Origin: Solirubrobacteraceae bacterium
GTDB taxonomy: Bacteria > Actinomycetota > Thermoleophilia > Solirubrobacterales > Solirubrobacteraceae
Assembly: GCA_017882375.1 (NCBI GenBank)
Contig: JADGPP010000018.1
Coordinates: 1 to 47,695 of the forward strand
Direction of reading: 5' to 3'
DNA length: 47,695 bases
Both the position numbers and the translations under genes were made by a program. Below, one piece after another: positions 13,872-44,861 of this stretch; within the stretch, counting starts at the first letter, position 1; each line of letters opens with the position of its first letter. The notes beneath the pieces were generated by a model. The model searched no databases. It was not told the DNA's origin and was given only the letters and a program-made list of their open reading frames with translations.

Positions 13872-13950
13872 TTCGATCTCCTTGCCTGTTGGGTCTGGGG
13901 TGGCCGGGCAAAGGCCTTTGACCACCGATACGAACGAGCGGCGCCTTTTC

Positions 13951-16155: not shown

Positions 16156-16920
16156 TTAGCGGCGCCGCCACGGCCGCCGCGGCTGGATCTCCTCGGTCGC
16201 GCCGGCGGGCGCTGGTGGGATCTCGCCACCGGCGAGGATCGCGGCGGGCACCTCAGATGTGAGCCACCCAGCGAGCGGCTGCAGACCGGCCGAACGCAGC
16301 TCGGCCGCCATCCCGGGCGCGCGGTCTGAGTGGTCGTGGGCGTCGGAGGCGACGTTGTGGACGAGCCCGTCGCGGACGAGCTCGAGCGCGAAGCGGCGCA
16401 CTTCTCCGCCGAAGCGGCCGACGAGCGAGCCGGCGGTGATCGAGGTGAGGATCCCGGCGCGCACGATGGATTCCAGCACAGCGCGGTCGCGGTGAAAGGC
16501 CGGACAGCGCTCTGGGTGTGCGAGGACCACGCGATATCCGCCGCGGAGGATGTCGAGCAGGATTGTGTCGATGCCGCCGGCAGAAGGGGTGAACGGCGGC
16601 TCGATCAGCAGCCAGGAGCCGCCGCCGAGTCCGAGCTCGGCAAGCCGCGCGGGCGCCATGTTGATGGCGCTCGTCAGCGCGATCTCCGCGCCGGGGCGGA
16701 CCTCGATCGCGATCCGCTCGGCGGCCAGGCGCTCGTTGAGCTCTCCGACGAGTCGCGCGATCGTAGCGGCGTCGTTCGGATAGCGCAGGTTCACGTGCGG
16801 CGTCGCCACGAGCGTGCGCGTGCCGCCGGCGCTCGCGGCGCGCGCGAGCGCCAGCGAGCCCTCGATCGTCTCCGGGCCGTCGTCTATGCCGGGCAGCACG
16901 TGGCAGTGCAGGTCGATCAC
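16156..16920 (-). CDS. cpsB: PHP-superfamily tyrosine phosphatase, CpsB/YwqE type
   Basis: A 254-residue metal-dependent phosphatase expected to dephosphorylate the BY-kinase of the same locus and thereby tune polysaccharide chain export. The start is taken at GTG 16920, because the protein then begins at the PHP motif DLHCHVLPGIDDG; the frame extends to 17001 without conserved sequence. Metal-ligand motifs are seen in order: HCH near residues 5-7, DDG, ATPHV, the RPGAEI glutamate, HPERC and DAHDH near the C-terminus. The length equals that of known YwqE/CpsB proteins. It lies next to the toxin-antitoxin pair that separates it from the kinase gene at 18069, all on the minus strand. The family assignment is firm; the partner is inferred from context. 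Confidence 0.9.
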   Translation of the reverse strand: MIDLHCHVLPGIDDGPETIEGSLALARAASAGGTRTLVATPHVNLRYPNDAATIARLVGELNERLAAERIAIEVRPGAEIALTSAINMAPARLAELGLGGGSWLLIEPPFTPSAGGIDTILLDILRGGYRVVLAHPERCPAFHRDRAVLESIVRAGILTSITAGSLVGRFGGEVRRFALELVRDGLVHNVASDAHDHSDRAPGMAAELRSAGLQPLAGWLTSEVPAAILAGGEIPPAPAGATEEIQPRRPWRRR

Positions 16921-17072
16921 GTCGTCCCCAACCTTAGGATGCGCTGCCTTCGGGTGCCTCCTGAAGTGGAGGAGGGAAGCGACATGCTCATCGGCTGCCA
17001 ACTGGCTCAGCGCCCCAAAGGCCGCCTGCTCGACGAGGGCGATCCCGGCAGCGTCATCCAGAGACCGGGTCC

Positions 17073-19824: not shown

Positions 19825-19882
19825 ATCACACACGATCACCCGCGCAAGGCAGGCACGATATCGAGCGTTGGTGGATAGAGCC

Positions 19883-21028
19883 ATGTCCCAAACTACGCAC
19901 AGCCGCTACTCCGCCTGCGCCATGCGGATCGTCTACGTGGTCGGCGCCAGGCCGAACTTCGTAAAGATGGCGCCGGTCATTTCCGAGCTGCGCCGGCGGA
20001 TACCGCACGGCCGCCACGCGCTCATCCACACCGGTCAGCACTACGACCGCCTGATGTCCGACATCTTCCTCGAGGAGCTTGGAGTGCCGGCCCCCGACCA
20101 CATGCTCGGCGTGGGTTCGGCCAGCCACGCCGTGCAGACCGCGCGGGTGATGGAGCGCATTGAGCCCGTACTGGAAGAGGAGCATCCCGATCTCGTGATC
20201 GTCCCCGGCGACGTCAACTCGACGCTGGCTGCGACGCTGGTGGCTGTCAAGCTCGGCATGCCCGTAGCCCACGTAGAGTCCGGACTGCGCTCGTTCGACC
20301 GCACCATGCCCGAGGAGATCAACCGGATCGTCGCCGATGAGTTCTCGGAGCACCTGTTCGTGCACTCCGAGGAGGCGATCGAGAACCTGAAGGCGGAGGG
20401 GGTTGCGGGCGAGCATATCCACTTCGTAGGCAACACGATGATCGACAGCCTCATGGCGATGGAACCGAGATTCCGGGACCTGAACGTCGCTGAGCGCTAT
20501 GGGCTCCAAGCCGGCGACTACCTGCTCGTGACGCTTCACAGGCCAGCCCTCGTCGATGGCCCACTCCTGCCCGACACGATCGAGGCGCTCGGGCGGGTTG
20601 CCAGTGAGCTTCCGGTGCTCTTTCCCGTCCATCCGCGTACACGTAAGATGCTCTCCACCGTCGAGCTTCCCGCCGGCGTGCAGCTCACCGATCCTGTCGG
20701 CTATCTGGACTTCCTGTCGCTGGAGACTGACGCGCGCGCCGTGCTGACCGACTCGGGTGGGGTGCAGGAGGAGACGACCCATCTCGGCATTCCCTGCTTC
20801 ACGCTGCGAGACAACACGGAGCGGCCTGTGACCGTGAGGGTCGGGACGAACACCCTGCTTGGTCTTAACCCCGACCGCATCGAGGAGATCCTGCGGATCC
20901 TCGACCATCCAAGCGTGGCCAGCGAGCCACCGGGATTGTGGGATGGGAGTGCTGCCGGACGGATCGGGGATGTGCTGGAAAGTTCCACCGAACGCCTCTC
21001 CGTTGAGCACTCGCTCATCGCTCGCTAA
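19883..21028 (+). CDS. wecB: UDP-N-acetylglucosamine 2-epimerase (non-hydrolysing)
   Basis: Interconverts UDP-GlcNAc and UDP-ManNAc in the cytoplasm, providing ManNAc-type sugar precursors. Family blocks are all present: VGARPNFVKMAPV, HTGQHYD, GDVNSTLA, HVESGLRSFDRTMPEEINR, GNTMIDSL, FPVHPRTR, LTDSGGVQEE and a final NTERPVT. From ATG 19883 the protein has 381 residues; ATG 19922 (MRIVYVVGARP, 368 aa) matches the usual family start but has no ribosome site, so either is possible. The frame is open to 19724, inside the divergent kinase. It is followed 19 bp later by a hexapeptide transferase, the sulfotransferase and the flippase, probably one operon. Confidence 0.93.
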   Translation: MSQTTHSRYSACAMRIVYVVGARPNFVKMAPVISELRRRIPHGRHALIHTGQHYDRLMSDIFLEELGVPAPDHMLGVGSASHAVQTARVMERIEPVLEEEHPDLVIVPGDVNSTLAATLVAVKLGMPVAHVESGLRSFDRTMPEEINRIVADEFSEHLFVHSEEAIENLKAEGVAGEHIHFVGNTMIDSLMAMEPRFRDLNVAERYGLQAGDYLLVTLHRPALVDGPLLPDTIEALGRVASELPVLFPVHPRTRKMLSTVELPAGVQLTDPVGYLDFLSLETDARAVLTDSGGVQEETTHLGIPCFTLRDNTERPVTVRVGTNTLLGLNPDRIEEILRILDHPSVASEPPGLWDGSAAGRIGDVLESSTERLSVEHSLIAR

Positions 21029-21047
21029 ACCGTGCATCGAGAAGCTG

Positions 21048-21539
21048 ATGACTGACCCTCCTCAAGGCAGACACACCACACCACACACCTCCGAAGCTAG
21101 CCGGATCGACGCCATTGCTCTGCATCACTTGGCCCATAAACTCTACACCGCAGGCATCCCAGTTATCCCCCGGCTAATCGATTACCTGATCTTCCTGCTG
21201 TTTAACTCGATCATTCCTCATACCGCGCGCATCGGAGAGGGCACACGATGTGGCTATCGCGGCATGAGCGTGCTGGTCCACAGTGACGCCGTCATCGGTC
21301 GACACGTGATGCTCGGAGCCCACGTCGTGATCGGCGGGCGGTCCAAACAGCCATCACCCGTGATCGAGGACGGTGTTTACATCGGAGCAAATGCCTGCGT
21401 GCTCGGCGATATCCGCGTCGGACGAGACGCGATCATCGGGGCCGGAGCAGTGGTTATCAATGACGTGCCGCCTGGCGCACGAGCAGTCGGCAACAAGGCG
21501 CGCATCCTTGATGGACTTCTTAGTGACAGCGAAGCGTAA
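21048..21539 (+). CDS. Left-handed beta-helix (hexapeptide) acetyltransferase
   Basis: A 163-residue serine-acetyltransferase-like enzyme. The N-terminal ~65 residues are helical and partly hydrophobic (LYTAGIPVIPRLIDYLIFLL). The hexapeptide repeats then build the beta-helix: IGEGTRCGYRGMSVLVHSDA, VIGRHVMLGAHVVIGG, IEDGVYIGANACVLGDI, VGRDAIIGAGAVVINDVPPG and a closing AVGNKARIL. It would acetylate a sugar or similar acceptor using acetyl-CoA. ATG 21048 follows GAGAAG; the frame opens at 20859 within wecB, but that part has no family features. Gene order suggests polysaccharide decoration. A serine acetyltransferase of cysteine synthesis is less likely, given the short helical domain and the context. 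Confidence 0.85.
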   Translation: MTDPPQGRHTTPHTSEASRIDAIALHHLAHKLYTAGIPVIPRLIDYLIFLLFNSIIPHTARIGEGTRCGYRGMSVLVHSDAVIGRHVMLGAHVVIGGRSKQPSPVIEDGVYIGANACVLGDIRVGRDAIIGAGAVVINDVPPGARAVGNKARILDGLLSDSEA

Positions 21540-21624: not shown

Positions 21625-22614
21625 ATGAAATCACTCCTTGGACCAGACTTCTTTATAGTTGGTGCACCCAAGTGTGGAACCACCTCGCTCAATACGTACC
21701 TCGCTGAGCATCCCTCGGTCTTTATGGCCAAAAAGGAGCAGCACTTCTTCGGCTCTGACCTTGCCCCAAGCTGGCCGCAGCCTACCGCTGAGCGGTACTT
21801 CGATTCTTTTGCAGGAACTGAGTGGGCTATGCGTCGAGGCGAGGCATCAGGCTGGTACCTCTGGTCGCGGCGCGCCGCCGAGGAGATTTGTGCCTACAGC
21901 TCAAGCGCACAGATAATCGCGATGCTCCGTAATCCGGTTGACATGCTTCCCTCACTCCATAGCCAGTACTTGCATGACGAGATCGACGATCTGAAAGACT
22001 TTGCGGAAGCTCTTGCCGCGGAAGACGATCGTCGATGCGGTCGGCGCATACCGCCACTCAACGGCTCATATCCCTGGCGGTTGTTCTACAAGGATGTGAT
22101 CCGCTTTCACGAGCAACTCGAACGGTACTACACGGTGTTCGGCCGCGATCAGGTTCATGTGATCCTCTTTGACGATCTCGTCGGCGACCCAGCGACAACA
22201 TACCGGCGCGCCCTAGAGTTCCTTGGCGTGGATCCAGCGTTCGTCCCAACCTTCCGCGTCATGAATCCCAACAAGCGAACCCGGAGTCCCAGAGTGAAGG
22301 GCATGGTAGCCAAAGTCATGGACCCGACATCGAGGATCCGACGTAGCGGCGTCCGTCTCATTCCAGTTCACGCTGTGCGTAGTGCCATGCTCAGGAGTGC
22401 TGTGCCGGCGGCTACGCGGCTGAACACTTCACTGGCGCCTCGGAGCGTGGTTGATCCCGAGCTCGGAGAGGACCTGGCAGCAGAGCTCGCGCCAAACATT
22501 GAGCGGCTCGGGGAAATCCTCGGGCGTGATCTCAGCCACTGGTACTCATCGGCGTGGGACGCGCGGAGACCCCGGTCGAAGGGACATCCCGTGAACCTAC
22601 GCAGGTCTGCATAA
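21625..22614 (+). CDS. PAPS-dependent sulfotransferase
   Basis: A 329-residue member of the carbohydrate sulfotransferase (Sulfotransfer_1) fold. The 5'-phosphosulfate loop FIVGAPKCGTTSLNTYL is at residues ~10-26 and the 3'-phosphate motif is RNPVDMLPSLHSQYLHDEID near residue 110. A KEQHFFG block near residue 35 is typical of heparan-type sulfotransferases. It should transfer sulfate from PAPS to a hydroxyl or amine of a saccharide precursor or chain in the cytoplasm. It lies between the acetyltransferase and the flippase (2-bp gap to the flippase ATG), so co-transcription is likely. Base composition is lower in GC than its neighbours, a hint of separate ancestry. The acceptor is unknown. Confidence 0.9.
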   Translation: MKSLLGPDFFIVGAPKCGTTSLNTYLAEHPSVFMAKKEQHFFGSDLAPSWPQPTAERYFDSFAGTEWAMRRGEASGWYLWSRRAAEEICAYSSSAQIIAMLRNPVDMLPSLHSQYLHDEIDDLKDFAEALAAEDDRRCGRRIPPLNGSYPWRLFYKDVIRFHEQLERYYTVFGRDQVHVILFDDLVGDPATTYRRALEFLGVDPAFVPTFRVMNPNKRTRSPRVKGMVAKVMDPTSRIRRSGVRLIPVHAVRSAMLRSAVPAATRLNTSLAPRSVVDPELGEDLAAELAPNIERLGEILGRDLSHWYSSAWDARRPRSKGHPVNLRRSA

Positions 22615-22616
22615 CC

Positions 22617-24224
22617 ATGTCGCTGGCACCTGCGGGTAGCGCCCCGCGGCAGGCAACGAAGGCCGCAGGCCACGCCCCCGACGGAGTCTTCAGCGACGTC
22701 AGCGCTCAGGCGGCGAGACCGGCCGGATCGATTCGAGGCGCCACGACCGTCGCCAGGGACCTCACAACTAATGGAAGTGGGCGGATCGCGTTGGCCGTGC
22801 TGTCGGCTGGATCGGTGGTAATTACTACCCGCATGCTTGGACCGGCCGGCTACGGGACTCTCGCCCTCGTCGGGATTGTCGCAACGCTCGTGTTTACCGC
22901 GAGCACGGCGTGGACCGGGATAGCTGTCCGGCGCTACGGCCGGGAAGACCTCGAGCTTGGTCGCACCATGAATCGGCTGACGTGGAACCGCGCATTGATC
23001 GGGGCACCGCTGGCAGCGATCTCGGTTGCCGCCGTCCTCACTCTGAAGCTCGTCGGAGCCCTGCCGTCCTCCCTGACGTGGCCGCTGGTCTGGATCGCCA
23101 TTGGATCGGCCCTAGTGGCAATCGTTGTCGATCACTGGGTCTGCATACTGGAGACGAGCGGAAAGATGAAGGTCAGCGCCGTGAGCCAAGTTGCGAGCCA
23201 GGTCCTATACGTTGGGATCCTCGTGGGGTTGTTTGTGGTCGCCCGGCGCGCCAGCCCTCAGACGGTCCTGATGCTCGCGCTCGGCTGTTCGGTTCTGCTT
23301 TCTATAGGCGTGGCTCCCGTGCTGTGGAGGGTCGGTGTGGTGCCTGTGTCGATCGACCGGACCCTATTGCGCCGGATGTTGCGTCTGTCCACTCCCATGA
23401 TTGCTTTCACGATCAGTCAATACGTGTTGGGCTCCGTTGACATCGTCGTCCTTCGTATGTTTCGCAGTCAAGCGGAAGTAGGTGTCTACGCGGTCGCCTA
23501 TCAGGCGTACACAGTGCTGTCGCGTATCGCGGTAAGCGCCACCGCGGTGTTCGTTCCTCTGTTCGTATCGCTTGAGATGGCAGGCCGGCGCAATCTTATC
23601 GAGCGGCACCTGAGACGCGGCGTGCCGCAAGGAACGTTCTTGCTTGCAGCGATAGGCGGCATTGTAATCCCGCTGCTCCCACTGATCGTGCCCGTCATGT
23701 TCGGCCATCGCTTTGAGGCCGCGGCGGCTCCCTTGTCGATCCTTGCTCTCGGCCTGCTTTGTCTGTTTGCAGGGTACCTCGTCTCTCCAATCCTCACGCT
23801 CCACGAGGATACTCGCGCAATAGCAGCGATCACTGCGTTGGCGGCTGTAATTAACGTGGCCGGCGATACGCTCATGATCGGCGTGCTCCACATGGGGATC
23901 GTCGCCCCGGCAATCGCAACATCGGGAGCTTTGGCTTTCGTATTCGCTGTGTTCTACGTGAGGGCTCAGCGGGCGCTTGACCAGGACGTTCGGTTCGATG
24001 CCTGGGTGGTCGCGCCGATCATCTCGGGACTCGTGCCCACCCTCGCGTGGGGCGGCGTTCTGGGTGCAGTAACCGGCATCGTTGCTGCTGCGGTGGCGTC
24101 AGTCGGGATCATAATGTGGCGATCACCGTTCAGTCGCGAGGACGCTGACCTCATCGCCAAGCTAGATCTGCCTGAGCTCGTCAAGCGCGTAGTTGTCAAG
24201 GTAGTTATCATGGGTTCCCGGTGA
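22617..24224 (+). CDS. Wzx-type oligosaccharide flippase
   Basis: A 535-residue polysaccharide transporter of the MOP superfamily with about 12-14 hydrophobic segments beginning near residue 55 (GSGRIALAVLSAGSVVITTR, MLGPAGYGTLALVGIVATLV). The charged first ~50 residues are cytoplasmic. It would move lipid-linked repeat units across the cytoplasmic membrane. ATG 22617 starts 2 bp after the sulfotransferase stop; the frame is open to 22554 but would overlap that gene. The position after wecB, acetyltransferase and sulfotransferase implies that the repeat unit may already be sulfated or acetylated when flipped. The gene converges on the second sulfotransferase, 10 bp away. Confidence 0.9.
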   Translation: MSLAPAGSAPRQATKAAGHAPDGVFSDVSAQAARPAGSIRGATTVARDLTTNGSGRIALAVLSAGSVVITTRMLGPAGYGTLALVGIVATLVFTASTAWTGIAVRRYGREDLELGRTMNRLTWNRALIGAPLAAISVAAVLTLKLVGALPSSLTWPLVWIAIGSALVAIVVDHWVCILETSGKMKVSAVSQVASQVLYVGILVGLFVVARRASPQTVLMLALGCSVLLSIGVAPVLWRVGVVPVSIDRTLLRRMLRLSTPMIAFTISQYVLGSVDIVVLRMFRSQAEVGVYAVAYQAYTVLSRIAVSATAVFVPLFVSLEMAGRRNLIERHLRRGVPQGTFLLAAIGGIVIPLLPLIVPVMFGHRFEAAAAPLSILALGLLCLFAGYLVSPILTLHEDTRAIAAITALAAVINVAGDTLMIGVLHMGIVAPAIATSGALAFVFAVFYVRAQRALDQDVRFDAWVVAPIISGLVPTLAWGGVLGAVTGIVAAAVASVGIIMWRSPFSREDADLIAKLDLPELVKRVVVKVVIMGSR

Positions 24225-24234
24225 GAACCGAGAG

Positions 24235-25101
24235 CTACGCGTGAAGATGTGTGAAGAACCGAGTTCCTCGAAGCTTCGCTTCTACCTCGTCGTAGTTGTC
24301 GATACCAGCTCGATGTGATTGGGGTGCGAGCCTCAACATCACGGCGGAAAGAGATTGGACAGAGTCGACTCCAATGCCCAGAAACCGGAGCGCATCGACC
24401 AGGCCGGCGTCATCCTCGAGGAGGGACTCGTACGTAACCTCATACGCGGTGACAGTGATCGCTCGGAGAAGGAGCTTCATGATGCGTCTCTCCTCCTCTA
24501 GCCGCGTCAAGTCGCGTAGGAGATGCACGGTATCGACGTGGATGCGAACAGTCTCTTGCTGCTCTGGCGTGCGCGCATGGACAAAGCGTCGCGCCTTCAT
24601 CGCTTCGCGAGACAGTACAATGTCGAGGAGATTCGTGCGGAGAAGGTGCAGCACGCGGACCTGCCGAGCGCGGAGGTAGACAAGGATCTCCGGATGGCGA
24701 ATCACCTGTGGGTACATTAGCTTGAAACCAATCGCACGAAAATTGAGTCGCGGCTCGTAGAGATAGTCGAGGTAGCGGAAGAGATCTAGATGCCAGCGGA
24801 GACGAGAGCCATCAGCGTTGCGTTCCTTGAGGTAGGTCGTGAAGAAGGGGCGATCAGCCGCACCGGGCGGCCAGTTCGACCATCCCTCCACCCCGCGCAG
24901 CAGTACCTCCCCATAGCCACCGACTTCCGGGTGCTTGGCGAGGCGTTCCATTACCCAGCTCGTACCGCTGCGCTGAGTGGAAAGCAAAACGAACCGGGTC
25001 AGGGGCTCGCCGCGGTGAAGAGGCGTAGCTATGTGCGGGACGGGATGAGGAGGCTTAGGGATGGACACTGCCGCTTCTACGTCACGAACGGCCGGGCGCA
25101 T
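24235..25101 (-). CDS. Sulfotransferase (Stf0/NodH-like)
   Basis: A 288-residue sulfotransferase distinct from the one at 21625. The 5'-phosphosulfate loop reads FVLLSTQRSGTSWVMERLAKH near residue 35, and the 3'-phosphate block LLRTNLLDIVLSREAM near residue 155. These match the Stf0/NodH type used on sugar acceptors. ATG 25101 is chosen; an in-frame GTG at 25125 would add eight residues. Either start overlaps the end of the upstream amidotransferase gene on the same strand (20 or 44 bp), indicating an operon of glycosyltransferase, amidotransferase and sulfotransferase. Acceptor unknown. A second sulfotransferase in one polysaccharide locus suggests sulfation at two positions or sugars. Confidence 0.85.
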   Translation of the reverse strand: MRPAVRDVEAAVSIPKPPHPVPHIATPLHRGEPLTRFVLLSTQRSGTSWVMERLAKHPEVGGYGEVLLRGVEGWSNWPPGAADRPFFTTYLKERNADGSRLRWHLDLFRYLDYLYEPRLNFRAIGFKLMYPQVIRHPEILVYLRARQVRVLHLLRTNLLDIVLSREAMKARRFVHARTPEQQETVRIHVDTVHLLRDLTRLEEERRIMKLLLRAITVTAYEVTYESLLEDDAGLVDALRFLGIGVDSVQSLSAVMLRLAPQSHRAGIDNYDEVEAKLRGTRFFTHLHA

Positions 25102-27016
25102 CCGCGACACCCGTCGTTGACGCACGATCGGTGATCGGCGACTCCACGACCTCTCGGTGCCAAAGCTCCAGTTGCAGGAGCACCCACAACCGCAGTGAAT
25201 GGTCGGCCAACCCGGCCTGATGTTGCTCGATCATCTGCGCGATCGCCGCCGGCTTGATGTATGCGTGAACGCGCGTGTCTGATCCCATGAGGACTTCGCC
25301 TGGAAGCTCGCGGAGGTCTTCGCGGAACCAGCGGGTCAGCGGAACACCGAATCCCATCTTCGGCCGGTCGAGCACCTCATCCGGCAGGATGCCCCGCAGA
25401 GCGGACTTAAGCAGCACCTTTCCGGCCATCCCGCGAAGCTTAAGGCTCGTCGGCAGCCCGGCGGCGAACTCCATTAGGTGATGATCCAAGAACGGCGAGC
25501 GCCCCTCTACGGAGTAGGCCATGGTCGCGATGTCCATCTTCACGAGGAGGTCTCCCGGCAGGTAGGTGTTGATGTCAGTGTCGAGCATGCGATCTACGCG
25601 GGATCGTGCGCTGGACCCGTACCACACCTCACGAATCACGTCCTCTGGATGCCAGTCGTCTATGGATGCGAGCAGCTCAGGCTGGAGCATGTCTGCATGG
25701 ATAGACGATGGAAATGCCGACATCCAATACGCGTAACGCTCGTATGGCTCCCTGGCCAGCACTCGAGCGAGACGCTGAATTCGTGCGCGCCAGCTATTGC
25801 TACGAGGCCCGTCGCCAAGCGGCGCTAGCACCGCTGGTGCCAGGCGTCGCAGCGACCGTGGGAGCCAGTTGAAGCGGTCAGCCAAGTCATTGCTGATGTA
25901 GCGTCCGTAACCGGCGAAGCTCTCATCCCCGCCATCGCCGTTAAGCGCTACCGTCACATGTTGTGAACTCAATTTGGCGAGGTAGAAGCTTGGAATCGCT
26001 GATGGATCGGCGAATGGCTCGCCGTAATGGCGCGCAAGCGTTGGCATGATCTCAAGAGCGTGAGGCTCGACGACAAACTCGTGATGATCCGTCGAGAAGC
26101 GCTCGGCGATCATTCGTGCATAGCGAAGCTCATCGAATTCGGCATCGGGAAAGCCGATCGAAAATGTCTTGACAGGCTCGGACGTCTGCTCGGACATAGC
26201 CGCGACGATTGCGCTCGAGTCAATCCCTCCCGAAAGAAACGCTCCAAGCGGAACCTCACTGATCAGGCGAACACGAGTCGCCTCCCAGATTAATTCGCGC
26301 AGTCGCTCTCTCAGGTCCTTCTGTGCAGGCTGTCGCTCTGGCTTTCTATAGTCGAGTGTCCAGTAGCGGCACGCACTGACTTCGTCTACGCTTACCGCTA
26401 GCGTTGACGCGGGCGGCAGCTTCTCGATGCCGACAAATGCGCTCATGGGATTAGGCACATATTGATAGGCGAGGTAGCTGACGATCGCTCGCGTGTTGGG
26501 CGTGCGATCGATCTCCGGGTCCTGCAGAAGCGCCATCATCTCGGAGGCAAACCACACCTTGCTGCCACGCCGCATAAGAAAGAGAGGCTTCTTACCGACA
26601 CGGTCTCGGCCTAGCAGCAATCGCTGCTGTCGGACGTCCCAGATCGCGAATGCGAACATGCCGCGGAGCTGGTTGACAAAACGGTCACCGTAGTCCTCGT
26701 ACAGGTGGACGAGTACCTCCGTGTCACAGTGGGTTGTAAACGCGTGGCCCCCAGCGAGAAGTTGGGCACGCAGCTCTTGAAAATTGTAGATCTCACCGTT
26801 CATGACGACTGCGGCCGAGCGATCCTCATTGAAGATGGGCTGATCTCCACCAGCGACATCGATGATGGCAAGGCGCTGCATGCCAAGGCCCGCGTGTCCA
26901 TCACACCAGACACCTCGCGAGTCCGGTCCCCGATACTCCATGGCAGCGCACATGCGATGAAGGAGCGCTGGGTCGACATCACCCGCAAAGTCGATCTTGC
27001 CGACTATTCCGCACAT
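25082..27016 (-). CDS. asnB: Asparagine-synthetase-type amidotransferase (AsnB family)
   Basis: A 644-residue glutamine-dependent amidotransferase. Cys2 of MCGIVG is the glutaminase nucleophile; YRGPDSRGVW, GEIYNFQEL and HCDTEVLVHLYEDYG complete the class-II glutaminase domain (residues 1-~200). The synthetase domain has the ATP pyrophosphatase loop FLSGGIDSSAIVAAM near residue 260. It could make asparagine. In polysaccharide loci, however, similar enzymes (for example WbpS of Pseudomonas) are thought to amidate uronic-acid sugars, and here it lies in an operon with a glycosyltransferase and a sulfotransferase. It overlaps both neighbours (13 bp with the glycosyltransferase gene). A second paralogue is at 39896. 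Confidence 0.9.
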   Translation of the reverse strand: MCGIVGKIDFAGDVDPALLHRMCAAMEYRGPDSRGVWCDGHAGLGMQRLAIIDVAGGDQPIFNEDRSAAVVMNGEIYNFQELRAQLLAGGHAFTTHCDTEVLVHLYEDYGDRFVNQLRGMFAFAIWDVRQQRLLLGRDRVGKKPLFLMRRGSKVWFASEMMALLQDPEIDRTPNTRAIVSYLAYQYVPNPMSAFVGIEKLPPASTLAVSVDEVSACRYWTLDYRKPERQPAQKDLRERLRELIWEATRVRLISEVPLGAFLSGGIDSSAIVAAMSEQTSEPVKTFSIGFPDAEFDELRYARMIAERFSTDHHEFVVEPHALEIMPTLARHYGEPFADPSAIPSFYLAKLSSQHVTVALNGDGGDESFAGYGRYISNDLADRFNWLPRSLRRLAPAVLAPLGDGPRSNSWRARIQRLARVLAREPYERYAYWMSAFPSSIHADMLQPELLASIDDWHPEDVIREVWYGSSARSRVDRMLDTDINTYLPGDLLVKMDIATMAYSVEGRSPFLDHHLMEFAAGLPTSLKLRGMAGKVLLKSALRGILPDEVLDRPKMGFGVPLTRWFREDLRELPGEVLMGSDTRVHAYIKPAAIAQMIEQHQAGLADHSLRLWVLLQLELWHREVVESPITDRASTTGVADAPGRS

Positions 27017-28191
27017 GTGAGTTCAACCCCCTCACCCAATGACGGTCTATCGTCGCCGACCGCACGATCTGACAGGATGTCAAGCCATCGGACAGCTATC
27101 ATGTCCGGGGCGTGATGTGCTGCTATGTACGAGCGGCACCGCTCTGAGAGATCTCGCCTGTCGTTGCGGGTCTGCCATTGCTCGCGCGCGAGCGCCACGA
27201 AAGCCCGGTGTGACCCACCAGCAAAGCTGCCTAACCCGTATCTGCCTATGACTCCGCCCGGATCATGGTTTAGGGCAAGCGCCGGCACGCCTCTGCTCCA
27301 CGCCTCAAGCAAGACGTTTGGCATACCCTCAAAGTCAGCCGTGTTAACCGACGCGACCGCGCGCGACATGAGTGCCTCAATCTCCGAGTGTGACCGAGGA
27401 GGTAGCAACTCAACGTTGGAAAGCTCCTCGGCCCCCGCAATCACCGCATCGACCAGCCGCTTATCATGCTCGTCGCTCGGCGTAGGTACGCCGATCATCC
27501 AGAAGCGTGCTTCTGGTAGAGCGCGGGCGAGAGCGAGATACTCGAGCGGGCGCTTGTAAGAGACCAGACGCCCAACCCAGATGAAGGCCTCTGGCATTCC
27601 ACGCTGTGGCTCGGCGGTCGCTGAAATGCTCTTGATCAGTGTGGGGTGACGACCAAACTTCGCCTTGCACAGCTCGATTTGCTCCTCTGTCTGGACAACG
27701 ATGCAGTTGGCCAGACGGACGCCCAGACTGTAGATGAGTAGATCGCGGTGGCGGGGCATCAACTTGCAGTAGTCAAAGTCGACGACATTCGCGCTCGAGA
27801 ACACCAAGCGCCGGCCAGCCATCCGTGCGTACACGGCAATCAAGCCGAGATCGATGCCGGCACCACGCTTAACCACCGTCCTGGAGGGCGCACGCCAGAG
27901 CGCCCTCCATATCTGGAAGGTCTCGAGGAACTTACCGATAAGCCGACTTCTCTTGCGATAATGCGGACGCGTGACGATGCTCACGCCATCGACGATCTTT
28001 GGTAGCTCATCAGCCCTGCCGTATACGATGATCGCGACAGACAAGCCGTGCCGGACTAGGACCTTGGCAAGCGCCAGTACCTGCGTCTCCGCTCCGCCCG
28101 GTGGCAGCGATGCCGTCGTGGACAGGATCGAACCTACCCACGGAGTGTAAAACACTACGTCGTGGCGTCGTGCTGTGCGCTCGCGCCTCAT
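27004..28191 (-). CDS. Family 4 glycosyltransferase
   Basis: A 395-residue GT-B fold enzyme. The N-terminal acceptor domain has the loop SLPPGGAETQVLALAKVLVR; the C-terminal nucleotide-sugar domain has FIWVGRLVSYKRPLEYLALA and the family EX7E element as EGMPNVLLE, followed by GVPALALN. It would transfer a sugar with retention at the cytoplasmic face of the membrane. It is the first gene of the minus-strand operon continuing into the amidotransferase and the sulfotransferase, overlapping the former by 13 bp. Donor and acceptor are unknown. The same pairing of a GT4 enzyme with an AsnB-type protein recurs at 39.9-42.8 kb. Confidence 0.9.
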   Translation of the reverse strand: MRRERTARRHDVVFYTPWVGSILSTTASLPPGGAETQVLALAKVLVRHGLSVAIIVYGRADELPKIVDGVSIVTRPHYRKRSRLIGKFLETFQIWRALWRAPSRTVVKRGAGIDLGLIAVYARMAGRRLVFSSANVVDFDYCKLMPRHRDLLIYSLGVRLANCIVVQTEEQIELCKAKFGRHPTLIKSISATAEPQRGMPEAFIWVGRLVSYKRPLEYLALARALPEARFWMIGVPTPSDEHDKRLVDAVIAGAEELSNVELLPPRSHSEIEALMSRAVASVNTADFEGMPNVLLEAWSRGVPALALNHDPGGVIGRYGLGSFAGGSHRAFVALAREQWQTRNDRRDLSERCRSYIAAHHAPDMIAVRWLDILSDRAVGDDRPSLGEGVELTCAE

Positions 28192-28557
28192 CAGCTTGCC
28201 GTCATCCGCTGTTGGTAAATTGCTAGTTCTCAGATCGGCTTAGTCGAGAAAGCGGTTTGCTGTCCGGCGAAGAAGTGAGAGCACTCAAGTGGGACAGGCC
28301 GGCGACCAATCGGTACACCGGACGTCGGTAGTTTAGCGCAAGCCTCATGCAAGTCGCGATAGCGATGCACTTGCCATGATCCCCTGTACGGCCGGACGCA
28401 AGCCTCGGTTAGCCACTGGCGTGGAATGCAGGCACTCGTGTTCACCCCGCGCCCGGTTCCGACCGGACACTCGATTAGACGCAGGAGGTCAGCATGTCGA
28501 GAGTCAGGGAGGCCCGGCATGGTTGGAGCACTGGAGGTGGATGTGCAGCACATTGGG
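28192..28557. other. Non-coding stretch left of the integrase remnant
   Basis: No gene is supported. A consensus-like AGGAGG at 28481-28486 precedes ATG 28494, but the frame (MSRVREARHGWSTGG and on) ends after about 40 codons, runs antisense to the integrase remnant and matches nothing I recognise. The region probably includes mobile-element debris. Confidence 0.45.
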
Positions 28558-28790
28558 GAGGGATCACGGCGAGCCGCGCGTTGCGGATGCGGATGCTGTT
28601 GTGGCGTTCGTGCTCGAGGTAATCGAGGAATGCGCCGATCAGCGGAGCGTCGAGGTCCTCGGGATCGACCTGGCAGGGCTGTTTGCCGGTTCGCCGTGCG
28701 GCGAAGGCAAGCAGCAGCCTGAGCGTGTCACGGTAGGCGTCGAAAGCCCCTTGGCGGGGAAGCGAAAGAACCGCGTTTCGCCGGCCGTTG
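28558..28790 (-). pseudogene. Truncated tyrosine recombinase/integrase (N-terminal domain)
   Basis: On the minus strand an open stretch encodes FDAYRDTLRLLLAFAARRTG, KQPCQVDPEDLDAPLIGAFL, then DYLEHERHNSIRIRNARLAVI. This is the SAM-like N-terminal core-binding domain of the Xer/phage-integrase family as found in IS91-associated integrases. The usual continuation (a segment like HSLFRYAAL and the catalytic R-H-R-Y domain) is missing; after ARLAVI the frame runs into unrelated sequence. The expected N-terminal block before AYRDT is degraded. The product cannot be an active recombinase. It lies between the glycosyltransferase start and the acyltransferase start and marks a past insertion or recombination. 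Confidence 0.75.
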
Positions 28791-28913
28791 ATGGGTTATG
28801 TGGCCCATGCGCCCGCTTATAGGATTCTCGATTTGAGCCTGCCAGGCGTCCTCGGGCGCCGCCTCGGAGGTCGACGCCCTTCCTCCCGCCTATCGAGCGG
28901 TCCCTCCCCTAAA

Positions 28914-31169
28914 ATGCGCCGAGCGTCGAGTGAAGGGGGGGGGACGCAGAGCGGCAAGTATCTCGCGACGCGTCGTCGCCGAGACATCCAGGGTTTGCGC
29001 GCAGTCGCCGTGCTCTTGGTCGCCCTCAACCATGCGGGCGTTGGTTTTCTGAAGGGCGGCTATGTCGGTGTAGATGTGTTCTTCGTTCTCTCCGGCTACC
29101 TGATCACCGGATTGCTTGTGTCGGCAGCCGACAAGGCACGTGGTCGCAGGGACTTCTCCCGTAAGTACTTTTCCGAGTTCTATGCGCGCCGAGCGCGTCG
29201 CATCCTCCCCGCCGCGACACTCACGCTGGTCGTCACCGACCTCGCGGCGTCCGGCCTGCTCAACGTGGAGCGGGCGCATCAAGTTCTGGTGGACAGCATC
29301 TATTCCACCTTCTTTGTGGCCAATTTCCACTTCGCGAGCATCGGCACGAACTACTTTGACATCGGGCAACCGCCATCGCCGCTCCAGCACTTCTGGTCGC
29401 TGTCAGTCGAGGAGCAGTTCTATCTCGTCTGGCCTCTGCTGCTGGTGATCGCCCTTCTAGGCATAACCCTTCGCGGGCACCATGATGACCAACGGAACAG
29501 ACCGTTATCCCGGGGAGCATTCCGCGCTTTGGGGGGCATCGCGGTGGTTATCACAGTGGCGTCTTTGGTGTATGCCGTCTACGACACGCATCACAGCTCG
29601 ACGGCCGCGTACTTCTCGTCACCTGCACGCGCGTGGGAGTTGGGCTTGGGCGCAATTCTTTCGCTCAACGTGCGCCGGTTCGCGCGCCTACCATCAGCGC
29701 TGCTAATGCCTATTGGCTGGTTGGGGGTTGCCGCCATCCTCGTCGCGAGCACCTTGTACTCCGCCTCCACTTTGTTCCCGGGACTACCCGCCCTCTTGCC
29801 GGCTATCGGTGCCGCAGCCGTTATTGCGGCTGGACTCAACGTCGATCAGTCTCCCAGCGCGCCGTCGCGGATCTTGTCCCTGCGGCCCTTTCGCTACGTC
29901 GGCGATCGCTCGTACACCTTTTACCTCTGGCACTGGCCGGTGCTTGTCTTGGTCGCGGAGCATGTCGGCCATAGCCTTTCGCTCACCACGAACCTCCTTC
30001 TTCTCGCTGGCGCATTTGTGCTCTCGATCGTCACTTACGCGCTCTTTGAGAACCCGATTCGTCAAACGGCCAAGGTGCCAGGTCCGGTTGCACTCGCATT
30101 TTGGCCGACGGCGATAATCACCGTACTTCTCGTCAGCTCGATCCATTGGAGCGATTACCAAGACGCGTTGAATTTCGCCTACGTGCCCGCTCACCGCCCG
30201 GAAATCCTAAAGGAATCGGAGGCCTCCTTTGTTGCGTCCACAGAACCCGCTCACCCTGGCTGGCGTCCATCGAGCCCGCCGGCTCTCGTGGAAGCTGTCG
30301 CTGCGGTACGCAGTTCGCGCAGGCTTCCGTCACCCCTGATACCGTCGGCTCTCGAACTCCCAAGCTCTGAGTACACACCCCCCGGAGGGTGCCTTGGCGA
30401 GCTCGTGGGGACACACAGTTCGATATGTAGCCTCGGAGACACCTCCAGCAGGAAGTCCCTCGTGGTGTTCGGGGACTCACACGCTAACATGTGGATGCCG
30501 GCGATCCTAAGCTTCGCGCAGCGTGAAAAATACGATGTGCGAGCGATTATGAAAAGTGGCTGTACAGCGAACCAGTGGGGTGGAAAAACCGAATGCGGCA
30601 CTTGGTACAAGTGGGGAGTTTCGCAGGCGCGCGGCCTGCATCCGTCGCTCCTAATCGTTACGGCCAGCTATAACGCAGTGGACTCGGAGGGCGTCGAATC
30701 CGAGGAACCAACCGTGATCGAAAATCTCTCCAAATTTGGTGCGGCCGTTCGATCGTCAGCCCACCGGATCGTTGTTATCGGTGATCCGCCCAAGCAGGGT
30801 CAGGAACCGACCGACTGTCTCCTTTCGTCACAGGCCACGATGAAGCGCTGTAGCGAGTCGGAAGGATCTGGGCAAGCCAGAATCACTGCGGGCGTCGAAT
30901 CGGCAACGAAGGCTTTTGGTGTGTTTCTCGACACCACACCGTGGTTGTGCTACCAGGGCGTATGCCCGATGGTCGTCGGCCATACGGTCGTTAAGCTCAA
31001 CCAGGGTCACATTACGGCGAGGTACGCCGAAGAGCTGGAGCCATTGTTCACTTCGGCGCTGAGGCGACTGCTGGCCCTTGGGGGGGCAGCTAGGCCGCGC
31101 CGCGCCGTAACCGTCTCGCATGCGCTGCGTAGCGGGGCATCCGTATCCGGCCACACGCACTTTCGGTAG
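28914..31169 (+). CDS. AT3-SGNH O-acyltransferase (OafA/YrhL type)
   Basis: A 751-residue membrane acyltransferase. The N-terminal AT3 domain begins DIQGLRAVAVLLVALNHAGV with YVGVDVFFVLSGYLIT and has about 10-11 membrane segments; ARRARRILPAATLTLVV and SVEEQFYLVWPLLLV are classic AT3 blocks. The C-terminal ~300 residues form an SGNH-type extracytoplasmic domain with LVVFGDSHANMW (block I) and a late LNQGHITA in the place of the catalytic Asp-His block. It would move acyl groups (usually acetyl) onto the polymer outside the membrane. ATG 28914 is chosen, though no good ribosome site precedes it and the frame opens at 28788 inside the integrase remnant; the remnant may have displaced the natural start. 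Confidence 0.9.
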   Translation: MRRASSEGGGTQSGKYLATRRRRDIQGLRAVAVLLVALNHAGVGFLKGGYVGVDVFFVLSGYLITGLLVSAADKARGRRDFSRKYFSEFYARRARRILPAATLTLVVTDLAASGLLNVERAHQVLVDSIYSTFFVANFHFASIGTNYFDIGQPPSPLQHFWSLSVEEQFYLVWPLLLVIALLGITLRGHHDDQRNRPLSRGAFRALGGIAVVITVASLVYAVYDTHHSSTAAYFSSPARAWELGLGAILSLNVRRFARLPSALLMPIGWLGVAAILVASTLYSASTLFPGLPALLPAIGAAAVIAAGLNVDQSPSAPSRILSLRPFRYVGDRSYTFYLWHWPVLVLVAEHVGHSLSLTTNLLLLAGAFVLSIVTYALFENPIRQTAKVPGPVALAFWPTAIITVLLVSSIHWSDYQDALNFAYVPAHRPEILKESEASFVASTEPAHPGWRPSSPPALVEAVAAVRSSRRLPSPLIPSALELPSSEYTPPGGCLGELVGTHSSICSLGDTSSRKSLVVFGDSHANMWMPAILSFAQREKYDVRAIMKSGCTANQWGGKTECGTWYKWGVSQARGLHPSLLIVTASYNAVDSEGVESEEPTVIENLSKFGAAVRSSAHRIVVIGDPPKQGQEPTDCLLSSQATMKRCSESEGSGQARITAGVESATKAFGVFLDTTPWLCYQGVCPMVVGHTVVKLNQGHITARYAEELEPLFTSALRRLLALGGAARPRRAVTVSHALRSGASVSGHTHFR

Positions 31170-31190
31170 AAGGGATGCGGTGACTAGCAC

Positions 31191-32174
31191 ATGAGTGAGG
31201 CGCCTCTGCACGAGATCCGCGGCGGCCGATTCCTGCCGTTTGCGGTCGAGCGCGCAGTGAACGCGGCCCGCTCACGTGGACCGGGATACGAGCCGACCCC
31301 CATCGGAACTGCCTTCGACAACGAAACCGTCTTGGGCTACTACATCGACTTTTGCTCCAAGACTGTCTCCAAGATCGCGGCTGACACCGACCGAATCCTT
31401 GCCGTCGCTCTCATGCAGCTGGCGCTTGGATGGTGGGAGCGCAATGTGGCGGGGGAGTCCCGTGCGCTGGATGAGTTCCTGAAGGTGTGCGACGTGATCG
31501 AGGGTCGCGCGCAGAAGACAGGGGATGAGCTGCGCTGGCCAGCCTCCGTGCCGGTTGCCAAGTACGGGCTCAAGCCCCCGTGGTGCTCTGCGCTGACGCA
31601 AAGCCAGGCCGCCTCGGTGTTCGTGCGTGCTCATCTGGCGACCGGGGAGGAACGCTATGCCGACCTCGCCAACCGCGCGGTGCGGCCGCTGCTCAGCGAC
31701 CGCTCGTCAGCCCTGGTGAGTCAGACAGCCTTTGGACCGATCCTCGAGGAGGCACCCGGTGCGCCGGCCAGCCATATCCTGAACGGCTGGATCACTGGGC
31801 TGTGGGGTCTTTGGGACGTGCACCTGGGTCTTGGGGACGCGTGCGCCGGCGAAAGCTTCTACGCAGGCGTGGAGTGCTTGCGCGTGCATCTCCATGCGTA
31901 TGACACGGGCTGGTGGAGCCGCTACAGCCTCTATCCGCACGCGCTCGAGGATCTCGCGAAGCCGATCTACCACCGTTATCACGTGGACCAGCTTGAAGTC
32001 CTCCATCGCCTCACAGGCCACGAGGACCTGAAGGAGGTCGCGACTCGCTGGGAGAGCTACGACCGCTCCCCTCTGCGCGCGCTCGCACTTGCGCAGAAGG
32101 CGGCGTTTGCCGTAGCCGAGAGGGGTAGGCGGCAACGCTGGCAAGTCCGTTTTGAGGCACAGCGGTCACCTTGA
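31191..32174 (+). CDS. D-glucuronyl C5-epimerase-like protein
   Basis: A 327-residue protein matching the C-terminal catalytic domain of D-glucuronyl C5-epimerases (Glce_C family). Family blocks: SHILNGWITGLWGLWDVHL (194-212), FYAGVECLRVHLHAYDTGWW (223-242), SRYSLYPH and IYHRYHVDQLEVLHRLTG (259-276). Animal and bacterial members turn D-glucuronate into L-iduronate within heparosan- or alginate-like chains. No signal peptide is visible, so it would act in the cytoplasm or on lipid-linked units, or be exported by another route. It is 21 bp after the acyltransferase and followed by a Wzy-type gene. With two sulfotransferases in the locus, an iduronate-containing sulfated polymer is a reasonable hypothesis; substrate specificity cannot be read from sequence. 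Confidence 0.82.
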   Translation: MSEAPLHEIRGGRFLPFAVERAVNAARSRGPGYEPTPIGTAFDNETVLGYYIDFCSKTVSKIAADTDRILAVALMQLALGWWERNVAGESRALDEFLKVCDVIEGRAQKTGDELRWPASVPVAKYGLKPPWCSALTQSQAASVFVRAHLATGEERYADLANRAVRPLLSDRSSALVSQTAFGPILEEAPGAPASHILNGWITGLWGLWDVHLGLGDACAGESFYAGVECLRVHLHAYDTGWWSRYSLYPHALEDLAKPIYHRYHVDQLEVLHRLTGHEDLKEVATRWESYDRSPLRALALAQKAAFAVAERGRRQRWQVRFEAQRSP

Positions 32175-32372
32175 CGACTTGGCTGTTAACTGCCCTGGTT
32201 TACTCTGCGCTAAGATTCCGCGATGGGTCCTTGTAAACCCGATCCGCAAGGATGGGGTGAGTACCTTGCTCCGCCTCGTGAGTCCACAGCCGAGGTGAGG
32301 TTCTTGGCATCTCTTGCCCGTCGAAAGATCCGGCAGCTGCACGTGTCGGCTGACCCGCAGTAGAACAAAGTG

Positions 32373-33770
32373 ATGCCGGCGAACTGGAGATCAGCTAACC
32401 GGCTGGCGGGAGCGGCCATGCTTTTCGGGCTTATAGCGCTCGTAGATGGCTATGCCATCGCAGAGGGTAAAGCGACGATCGCGATTGCATTTGTGGTCGT
32501 GCCGTTGTTGATATTGCGGCGCATCAGAAGGTACGATGGACTCGCCGTTGCGTTGATACTCACGTTGGCGCTGCCGTCCTGGTACACGCTCGGGAGTCCA
32601 CAGGCTACCGTGTTTCGGATAGCTGCGATATCTGCATTGGCGACAGCGCTCTTTGCGCGAGGGGTCCGTTTCACGCTTGCCGACGCTGCGGTCGTCGCAA
32701 TAGTCGTGGTGGCCGTACTTGGCTGGCTACTGCAGGACGATCAGCCGGGCGTCGGCAAACTCGTGCTCAACGAGATGCTTCCTCTCTCTTTCTACGTGTC
32801 GGCGCGTACGCTGCCAGTTCGCCAAATTGGGCGGTTCATGACTCTCGTTTCTATTGCCGGTGTCTTCGGGGCCGCAACCGTGATCTACGAGTTCGTCGCA
32901 GGCCACGTTTTGTTCCACGAACGCCTAAGCTACGTCTGGAACACAACCGAAACAACGATCTTTCGGCCGGGAGGCATATTTGGGAGCCCGCCCACTGCCG
33001 CATCGGTGCTCGCAATGGCGATTCTCTGCGGCATACCTGTCAACCGTATGCTGAACGGAAAGTGGCGCTTGATGCATAGAGTTTGCCTTGCCGTGATGAC
33101 CACCGCGTGCGCTCTGACTTTCACACGCACGAGCCTTATCGGGCTCGGTGTTGGATTGCTCACTTACCTTTTCTTGATGCGGTCATCGCTGATTACTCCG
33201 CCACGGTTGCTCGCAGGCGCCGTCACGTTGTTTGTGGTTGTAGTCGTTGTGCTCCCGCAGATCGAAAATACCAGGACGTTCCAGCAAGGCATCGTCCGCC
33301 CAGGCAGCTTGGCGGTGCGAGAGGATTACTGGCAACTGGCGCTACCCATAATAACCGCGAGTACTCACAATGTGATCTTTGGAATCGGCTCCGAGCGTAC
33401 GCTTATCTCTCGAACCGGAGGTGCTGTACCGTCGTCGCTTGCGACCGCGCCCGCGCTCTTCGAGCACAGCATCCAGAATCAATATGTGTTGACGGCGCTT
33501 GAGAATGGATTCATCGGGCTACTTGTGCTTTTGGCATGGATCGCTGCCGTGATACGCACAGGGCTTCGGACGGTGCGCAAGGAGAGTGATCATCTCAGCG
33601 CAGCACTTGTTGGAGTTCTTCTCGCATTCGTCGTGGTGCTGGTGGCTAACGATGCGTTGCTTTCTCAACCGGGCTTTGCGATGGCCGCGCTGGTATCGGG
33701 ACTCATCGTTGCGAGAAGTATGGCGAAGCGTGGGACGGAGGAGGATCTCTCCAGGATGATCCGACCCTAG
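32373..33770 (+). CDS. O-antigen polymerase/ligase-type membrane protein (Wzy-like)
   Basis: A 465-residue protein with about 11-12 hydrophobic segments (for example AGAAMLFGLIALVDGYAI and LLAGAVTLFVVVVVVLPQI) and a large extracytoplasmic loop near residues 300-370. TFTRTSLIGLGVGLLTYLF and HSIQNQYVLTALENGFIGLL are typical of the O-antigen ligase/Wzy group. It likely polymerises flipped repeat units. ATG 32373 and the GTG three bases earlier are equivalent. GC content is lower than in region 1. This is the second Wzy-like protein in the window (see 13990), so one may polymerise and the other ligate chains to a lipid or wall anchor. Confidence 0.85.
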   Translation: MPANWRSANRLAGAAMLFGLIALVDGYAIAEGKATIAIAFVVVPLLILRRIRRYDGLAVALILTLALPSWYTLGSPQATVFRIAAISALATALFARGVRFTLADAAVVAIVVVAVLGWLLQDDQPGVGKLVLNEMLPLSFYVSARTLPVRQIGRFMTLVSIAGVFGAATVIYEFVAGHVLFHERLSYVWNTTETTIFRPGGIFGSPPTAASVLAMAILCGIPVNRMLNGKWRLMHRVCLAVMTTACALTFTRTSLIGLGVGLLTYLFLMRSSLITPPRLLAGAVTLFVVVVVVLPQIENTRTFQQGIVRPGSLAVREDYWQLALPIITASTHNVIFGIGSERTLISRTGGAVPSSLATAPALFEHSIQNQYVLTALENGFIGLLVLLAWIAAVIRTGLRTVRKESDHLSAALVGVLLAFVVVLVANDALLSQPGFAMAALVSGLIVARSMAKRGTEEDLSRMIRP

Positions 33771-38760: not shown

Positions 38761-38802
38761 GTGAAAAGCTGTTACGCTCGTCACAGATAGCGGCAGACAC
38801 GG

Positions 38803-43862: not shown

Positions 43863-43875
43863 GGCCCAGTCGGCG

Positions 43876-44850: not shown

Positions 44851-44861
44851 CAAATGCCTCC

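What the first reader, a model, noticed from the sequence alone, without database searches (positions are those of the whole stretch)
21625..32174. Gene set for a sulfated, uronic-acid (glycosaminoglycan-like) polymer
Within 11 kb there are two different PAPS sulfotransferases, a D-glucuronyl C5-epimerase-like protein, a flippase, a Wzy-type polymerase just beyond (32373) and an acyltransferase; a UDP-glucuronate-type 4-epimerase lies in the same locus (43876). Sulfotransferase plus glucuronyl C5-epimerase is the combination that makes heparan sulfate in animals. Such a set in an actinobacterial polysaccharide locus would be notable and may be an undescribed polymer.
Basis: inference. Interest (0 to 1): 0.75.

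Follow-up and report, generated by a model that had tools for sequence, protein, structure and literature searches.

The report
Capsule locus: sulfotransferases plus C5-epimerase
An uncultured actinobacterium carries a complete surface-polysaccharide gene set with two sulfate-adding enzymes and a relative of the enzyme that makes iduronic acid in heparin, so it probably makes a sulfated acidic sugar polymer, but one key residue of the epimerase is missing and nothing ties the polymer specifically to heparan sulfate.

Summary
The genes are real and in place. 21625-22614(+) is a clear PAPS sulfotransferase; 24235-25125(-) is a divergent one, supported by fold; 31191-32174(+) is a GLCE-family (C5-epim_C) protein; Wzx, Wzy, AT3-SGNH acyltransferase and a UDP-glucuronate 4-epimerase are confirmed. 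Its refutation tests were run: the genome encodes UDP-glucose dehydrogenase and CysD-CysNC; the only APS kinase lies on a contig with six more sulfotransferases, apart from an APS-reductase operon, so PAPS is probably for sulfation. A same-genus genome carries an allele of this locus that keeps the sulfotransferase, flippase, GT4, AsnB, 4-epimerase and priming transferase but lacks the C5-epimerase. GLCE's catalytic residues E499, N510, Y560 and Y578 are kept, but Y500 is Ala. The modifying enzymes look cytosolic, so they should act on lipid-linked repeats before flipping, unlike heparan sulfate. Best reading: a Wzx/Wzy capsule, probably sulfated and uronate-containing, with a possible iduronate (or other L-uronate) step. 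'Glycosaminoglycan-like' is not supported as such. New variant of a known kind.

The parts
13990..16050 (-). Wzy_C / O-antigen-ligase-like membrane protein (second polymerase or ligase)
   Evidence: PF04932 E=9.8e-15; about 11 TM-like segments; also in the G530 allele
16156..17001 (-). CpsB/CapC-like tyrosine phosphatase of capsule synthesis
   Evidence: PF19567 E=8.9e-41
18069..19742 (-). Wzz chain-length determinant fused to tyrosine-kinase-like ATPase
   Evidence: PF02706, AAA_31, GNVR; 53-75% identical copies in several genus mates
19922..21028 (+). WecB, non-hydrolysing UDP-GlcNAc 2-epimerase (UDP-ManNAc supply)
   Evidence: TIGR00236 310 bits, above its cut-off; start
21048..21539 (+). 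EpsC/CysE-like hexapeptide acyltransferase (start uncertain)
   Evidence: PF00132; NF041874 EpsC 99 bits, below cut-off 150
21625..22614 (+). ST1, PAPS sulfotransferase, cytosolic by sequence
   Evidence: 63% identical copy next to Wzz and Wzx in G530
22554..24224 (+). Wzx flippase (likely start near 22611)
   Evidence: PF01943 E=2.2e-15; about 14 TM-like segments
24235..25125 (-). ST2, divergent sulfotransferase-fold protein
   Evidence: subthreshold PF13469; fold matches are sulfotransferases; relatives in only 3 other genomes of the order
25082..27016 (-). AsnB1, glutamine-dependent amidotransferase
   Evidence: PF00733 E=1.6e-101; TIGR03108-like, TIGR01536; also in the G530 allele
27004..28191 (-). 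GT4-type glycosyltransferase
   Evidence: PF00534; also in the G530 allele
28788..31169 (+). AT3 + SGNH O-acyltransferase (membrane)
   Evidence: PF01757 E=8.2e-30, PF19040 E=2.3e-20
31191..32174 (+). C5-epim_C (GLCE-family) putative uronyl C5-epimerase; residues E187, A188, N198, Y245, Y260 stand at GLCE E499, Y500, N510, Y560, Y578
31752..31754 (+). GCA codon (Ala188) at the position of GLCE Y500
   Evidence: alignments
32370..33770 (+). Wzy polymerase
   Evidence: PF04932 E=1.1e-11; 11 TM-like segments
34548..35909 (-). polytopic membrane protein, glycosyltransferase-C-like by appearance; no family hit
38803..39519 (-). SAM-dependent methyltransferase
   Evidence: PF08241 E=6.2e-18
39896..41773 (-). 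AsnB2, glutamine-dependent amidotransferase (real start about 41773)
   Evidence: PF00733 E=6.6e-92; start
41773..42810 (-). GT4-type glycosyltransferase
   Evidence: PF13692; also in the G530 allele
42813..44030 (-). DUF354 glycosyltransferase-like protein (core begins about 43832)
   Evidence: PF04007 E=3.5e-32
43876..45009 (-). UDP-glucuronate 4-epimerase (real start about 44850)
   Evidence: 6ZL6 E=2e-82, MoeE5 8e-66; Tyr149, Lys153, Arg185 conserved
44862..46484 (-). polyprenyl-phosphate priming glycosyl-1-phosphate transferase
   Evidence: PF02397 E=6.1e-61; TIGR03025 360 bits above cut-off

Best explanation
This is a Wzx/Wzy-dependent capsule or exopolysaccharide locus of an uncultured Solirubrobacterales bacterium whose polymer is probably sulfated and contains uronic acid. 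Inferred route: the priming transferase (44862-46484) starts a repeat on undecaprenyl phosphate; GT4-type transferases extend it with GlcA and/or GalA (UDP-GlcA from the Ugd on contig C150, UDP-GalA through 43876-45009) and a ManNAc-type sugar (WecB). In the cytosol, before flipping, the GLCE-family protein inverts C5 of a uronate in the lipid-linked repeat (GlcA to IdoA, or GalA to L-altruronate), and ST1 and ST2 add sulfate from PAPS made by CysD-CysNC; the AsnB proteins may amidate uronate carboxylates. Wzx flips the unit, AT3-SGNH O-acylates it, Wzy polymerises under Wzz control. Shown: gene families, fold, conserved residues, supply genes, conservation of the sulfation frame in a genus mate. 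Inferred: sulfation itself, order of steps, substrates. Least certain: that the C5-epimerase is active, since Y500 is Ala.
For: Families and assembly frame. ST1 and ST2. GLCE fold with E499, N510, Y560, Y578 kept. UDP-glucuronate 4-epimerase with the carboxylate-binding Arg185. UDP-glucose dehydrogenase. The only APS kinase of the genome is a CysNC next to CysD on C56, with six sulfotransferases in a second polysaccharide locus, while a separate operon on C53 holds sulfite reductase, an APS-reductase-like CysH (CC and CxxC), CysD and CysN without kinase. G530 of the same genus keeps Wzz, ST1 (63%), Wzx, GT4, AsnB, Wzy, GT4, 4-epimerase and priming transferase in a compact locus. In nearly all order-level relatives the epimerase lies beside Wzz, priming transferase or GT4 genes. 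No signal peptide or TM segment in C5epi, ST1, ST2. Precedent for a C5-epimerase plus two sulfotransferases on a lipid-linked glycan: Halobacterium Agl32, Agl30, Agl31 (PMC13308652, PMC11980604).
Against: Y500 of GLCE is Ala188; all 23 nearest orthologues aligned keep Tyr. In 80 wider relatives 27 lack it while the other four residues are constant, apart from one locally misaligned E499 cell, so loss is common but its effect is unknown. Sulfotransferases are frequent in this order, so co-location alone is not significant. ST2 rests on a middling model. Substrate specificities cannot be read from these families. The genome is a draft in 172 contigs.
Confidence: 0.6

Rival explanations
1. Sulfated uronate capsule without epimerisation: the C5-epim_C protein has lost or changed its activity (Y500 to Ala) and is a relic, a binding protein or an enzyme of another reaction on the repeat; the sulfation part works.
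For: Y500 replaced by Ala, and by Val in the closest relative L126; the same-genus allele in G530 lacks the gene; a second EPS-type copy with intact EEYP exists on C167 in the same genome.
Against: The frame is intact, four other catalytic residues are kept, the fold is confident (pLDDT 88), and it sits in a tight array with AT3 and Wzy; the window/L126 pair is a supported clade with long branches but no decay.
Confidence: 0.27
2. The sulfotransferases act on something else (lipid, trehalose-like glycolipid or secondary metabolite) and only happen to lie in the capsule locus.
For: Stf0, which binds trehalose, is the best structural match of ST2; sulfotransferases are abundant in the genus.
Against: ST1 lies between Wzz and Wzx in both this genome and G530 and abuts wzx; ST2 abuts AsnB1 and the GT4 gene.
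Confidence: 0.09
3. A heparan-sulfate-like glycosaminoglycan: repeating GlcA/IdoA-GlcNAc polymer with N- and O-sulfate.
For: GLCE homologue with ST1, whose nearest animal relatives in the PDB are heparan sulfate 3-O-sulfotransferases.
Against: No gene of the locus indicates an alternating GlcA/GlcNAc polymerase; Wzx/Wzy assembly, WecB, AsnB and acyltransferase point to a more complex repeat; modifying enzymes look cytosolic; no hit to N-deacetylase PF12062 or Sulfotransfer_2 PF03567, though the controls did not ring.
Confidence: 0.04

Closest known systems
[quoted passage not shown]
   Same: Homologous catalytic alpha-helical domain; E499, N510, Y560, Y578 equivalents kept
   Different: Y500 is Ala; [quoted passage not shown] cytosolic by sequence instead of Golgi; substrate unknown
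Bermanella marisrubri RED65_08024, the only characterised bacterial glucuronyl C5-epimerase (as cited in PMC13308652, PMC4432689)
   Same: Bacterial relative of human GLCE by sequence
   Different: Sequence not available here for comparison; its natural polymer is unknown; no sulfotransferase pairing reported in the sources read
Halobacterium salinarum N-glycan pathway: Agl32 epimerase with sulfotransferases Agl30 and Agl31 (PMC13308652, PMC11980604)
   Same: One C5-epimerase and two sulfotransferases modifying uronates of a short lipid-linked glycan before flipping
   Different: Archaeal, one tetrasaccharide on proteins, and Agl32 is reported to lack the GLCE catalytic residues and to align poorly with GLCE
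Capsule locus of same-genus genome G530 (contig C7, about 209-227 kb)
   Same: Wzz, ST1, Wzx, GT4, AsnB1, Wzy, GT4, UDP-GlcA 4-epimerase, priming transferase
   Different: Lacks WecB, ST2, AT3-SGNH and the C5-epimerase; has a divergent Wzy
Sulfated marine exopolysaccharides such as Alteromonas infernus GY785 (PMC4189415)
   Same: Bacterial sulfated polysaccharide precedent
Bacillus cereus UDP-glucuronate 4-epimerase (PDB 6ZL6) and MoeE5
   Same: Closest solved relatives of 43876-45009, key residues conserved
   Different: None of note at the residues tested

Membership tests
GLCE-type D-glucuronyl C5-epimerase | C5-epim_C domain above the curated cut-off | tested here: met
   120.7 bits against cut-off 23.3
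GLCE-type D-glucuronyl C5-epimerase | GLCE catalytic-domain fold | tested here: met
   Z 28-29 to 6HZZ, 6I01, 4PW2; next fold Z 15.6
GLCE-type D-glucuronyl C5-epimerase | Catalytic residues E499, N510, Y560, Y578 | tested here: met
   E187, N198, Y245, Y260
GLCE-type D-glucuronyl C5-epimerase | Catalytic residue Y500 | tested here: not met
   Ala188, codon GCA at 31752
GLCE-type D-glucuronyl C5-epimerase | N-terminal beta-hairpin and beta-sandwich domains | tested here: not met
   327 aa, model almost all helix
GLCE-type D-glucuronyl C5-epimerase | C5 epimerisation of GlcA in a chain | not testable with these tools
   needs enzyme assay
PAPS-dependent sulfotransferase | ST1: Pfam sulfotransferase above cut-off, solved relatives | tested here: met
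   54.5 bits against 27; 3RNL 6e-37
PAPS-dependent sulfotransferase | ST2: Pfam sulfotransferase above cut-off | tested here: not met
   17.9 bits against 27
PAPS-dependent sulfotransferase | ST2: sulfotransferase fold | tested here: inconclusive
   best 25 matches are all sulfotransferases, Z 12.8 to 10.6, but the model has pLDDT 67.6
UDP-glucuronate 4-epimerase | Closest relatives are characterised enzymes; Tyr149, Lys153, Arg185 kept | tested here: met
Wzx/Wzy-dependent polysaccharide locus | Priming transferase, GTs, Wzx, Wzy, Wzz/kinase, phosphatase together | tested here: met
Heparan-sulfate-type biosynthesis | UDP-GlcA and PAPS supply in the genome | tested here: met
Heparan-sulfate-type biosynthesis | GlcNAc N-deacetylase/N-sulfotransferase | tested here: inconclusive
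   PF12062 gave no hit but the control rang nowhere
Heparan-sulfate-type biosynthesis | Alternating GlcA/GlcNAc polymerase and polymer composition | not testable with these tools
   GT specificities not predictable; polymer not available

The most novel reading that the evidence does not exclude
A bacterial capsule whose lipid-linked repeats are C5-epimerised to iduronate (or L-altruronate) by a stand-alone GLCE-fold enzyme and sulfated in the cytosol, i.e. an independently assembled sulfated L-uronate polymer, with the same pairing arrived at several times (window; one Solirubrobacterales genus; Rhodopirellula maiorica; one further actinobacterial genome).
Probability: 0.33. Interest if true: 0.72.

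Novelty: new variant of a known kind. Interest (0 to 1): 0.45.

Why it matters
A 2015 review states that sulfation had not been observed among prokaryotic GAGs although iduronate had (PMC4432689), and a 2026 paper counts one identified bacterial glucuronyl C5-epimerase (PMC13308652). If this locus makes a sulfated iduronate polymer, it gives compact, soluble, single-domain enzymes and shows epimerisation and sulfation moved to the lipid-linked stage. The natural variation at Y500, with the other four catalytic residues fixed, is a ready test of that residue's role.

Tried and rejected
Chance or mis-called frames: rejected, E-values and operon overlaps. ORF 19826-21037(-) as a gene: rejected, WecB is on the other strand. 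Frameshift or sequencing error as cause of Ala188: unlikely, the alignment is in register and Tyr to Ala needs two base changes. Misbinned contig: unlikely, Wzz is 75% identical to a genus mate and the locus is syntenic with G530. Statistical enrichment of sulfotransferases next to the epimerase: not claimed; 4 of about 23 order-level loci, three of them one genus, against a high background; on the tree the pairing needs at least 4 changes (quick tree). Absence of heparan N-deacetylase and Sulfotransfer_2: not usable, controls silent. PDB sequence search with ST2 gave no sulfotransferase. Literature searches for sulfated exopolysaccharide clusters in actinobacteria, for Solirubrobacterales sulfotransferases and for infernan gene clusters found nothing in the held library; Debarnot 2019, Raedts 2011 and 2013 are not held, so the catalytic role of Y500 is taken from the list in PMC13308652.
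Full report
What was checked. The finding names two sulfotransferases, a D-glucuronyl C5-epimerase-like protein, a flippase, a polymerase, an acyltransferase and a UDP-glucuronate-type 4-epimerase. All are present at the stated coordinates. ST1 (21625-22614+) is beyond doubt. ST2 (24235-25125-) falls below the Pfam cut-off and finds no sulfotransferase in the PDB by sequence; an AlphaFold model from five sequences (mean pLDDT 67.6) matches Stf0, tyrosylprotein sulfotransferases, 3RNL and heparan 3-O-sulfotransferases best, and nothing but sulfotransferases in the first 25 rows. I accept it as a divergent sulfotransferase with moderate confidence.

The long minus-strand frame 19826-21037 is not a gene; the plus strand codes WecB, UDP-GlcNAc 2-epimerase. 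Two AsnB-type amidotransferases, an EpsC/CysE-like acyltransferase, Wzz with kinase domain, a CpsB-like phosphatase, a second Wzy_C protein and the priming transferase complete a Wzx/Wzy locus of about 32 kb, 13990-46484. G+C falls from 0.65-0.72 in the flanking assembly genes to 0.58-0.62 in most of the middle, the usual look of a variable capsule core (inference).

The epimerase. PF06662 at 120.7 bits; only animal GLCE among significant solved sequences; model pLDDT 88, Foldseek best matches all GLCE, structural Z 28-29 against 15.6 for the next fold. PMC13308652 lists GLCE's key residues as E499, Y500, N510, Y560, Y578. The window protein has E187, A188, N198, Y245 and Y260 there; the codon is GCA at 31752. 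All 23 nearest orthologues aligned keep Tyr; more distant ones such as L097 do not. Among 80 relatives from named genomes 53 have Tyr and 27 do not, while the other residues are constant except one E499 cell that is a local misalignment in L126. L126, the closest relative (46%), has Val after the two Glu and pairs with the window protein at 99% support (quick tree, the careful one was not finished). So the loss is a lineage trait rather than a one-off error, and its effect on catalysis is unknown.

Distribution. Biosynthetic-type epimerases occur in about 22 of 232 genomes of the order and in scattered phyla, nearly always beside Wzz, priming transferase or GT4 genes. A second, secreted-looking, about 540-residue PF06662 type is found in most genomes of the family. 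No genus mate holds the biosynthetic type. Sulfotransferases lie near the epimerase in the window, in three species of one genus (L073/L134, L085/L145, L086/L149), in L097 and in Rhodopirellula maiorica. Since 129 of 232 genomes have sulfotransferases, some with a dozen or more, this alone is weak.

Stronger locus evidence. In G530, same genus, a compact allele of the locus reads Wzy2, Wzz, ST1 (63% identity), Wzx, GT4, AsnB1, an unassigned gene, Wzy, GT, GT4, UDP-GlcA 4-epimerase, priming transferase. So ST1 and the UDP-GlcA 4-epimerase belong to a shared frame, and WecB, ST2, AT3-SGNH and the C5-epimerase are additions in the window's version (or losses in the other).

UDP-glucose dehydrogenase is on C150; a second dehydrogenase on C167 is nearest UDP-ManNAc dehydrogenases, which would fit WecB. 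CysD and CysNC are on C56, and this is the only APS kinase found. A separate operon on C53 has sulfite reductase, CysH with the CC and CxxC motifs of APS reductases, CysD and a CysN without kinase. PAPS is therefore probably made for sulfation (inference). C56 also holds six sulfotransferases with an ABC exporter, Wzz, GTs and AsnB: a second candidate sulfated-polysaccharide locus.

Mechanism. C5epi, ST1 and ST2 show no signal peptide or TM segment by hydropathy. PAPS is cytosolic and Wzx flips finished repeats, so both modifications should take place on the lipid-linked repeat (inference). This resembles Halobacterium, where Agl32 epimerises a lipid-linked tetrasaccharide and Agl30/Agl31 sulfate it (PMC13308652, PMC11980604), and differs from heparan sulfate, which is modified as a polymer. 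The 4-epimerase keeps Arg185, which binds the UDP-GalA carboxylate (PMC12338863), so GalA is as likely a uronate as GlcA, and the C5 product could be IdoA or L-altruronate. The AsnB proteins might amidate uronates (from general knowledge of O-antigen loci; untested).

Verdict. Observation confirmed. Interpretation partly supported: a sulfated uronate polymer is likely, C5 epimerisation is possible but one catalytic residue short, and a glycosaminoglycan-type structure is not indicated. New variant of a known kind, interest 0.45.

Noticed in passing
own genome contig C56: L040:152-3187, L040:3250-7809, L041:1613-3551, L041:6866-10774, L041:10814-15860: Second polysaccharide locus with six sulfotransferases (four in tandem), ABC exporter, Wzz, GT4s, AsnB and the genome's only CysNC (APS kinase). 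Sulfation seems to be a general trait of this organism.
   Followed up: partly
own genome contig C167: L042:8110-9177(+), L043:6782-8089(-): A second biosynthetic-type C5-epimerase with all GLCE catalytic residues, in another EPS locus with Wzz, two SDR genes and a UDP-ManNAc-dehydrogenase-like gene; no sulfotransferase found on the contig.
   Followed up: partly
own genome contig C47: L045:7569-9179(-), and most genomes of the family: A secreted-looking PF06662 protein of about 540 aa is nearly universal in the family and lacks the H..Q part of the GLCE motif; its function is unknown.
   Followed up: no
PF06662 alignment, loci L126-L205: The position of GLCE Y500 varies (Y, F, C, V, A, I and others) while E499, N510, Y560 and Y578 are fixed: natural variation at a listed catalytic residue across bacterial C5-epim_C proteins.
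   Followed up: partly
window 13143-13925(-) and 12427-13080(-): ECF-type sigma factor and a protein with an Asn/Gly-rich low-complexity stretch next to the capsule locus; a similar sigma factor frame lies near the locus in G530.
   Followed up: no
window 45-1409(-), 1395-3320(+): GGDEF and GGDEF-EAL proteins on the same contig as the polysaccharide locus; c-di-GMP control is possible.
   Followed up: no
window about 35910-37034 and 37974-38802: Stretches with no convincing gene inside the locus, perhaps remnants of past gene exchange.
   Followed up: no
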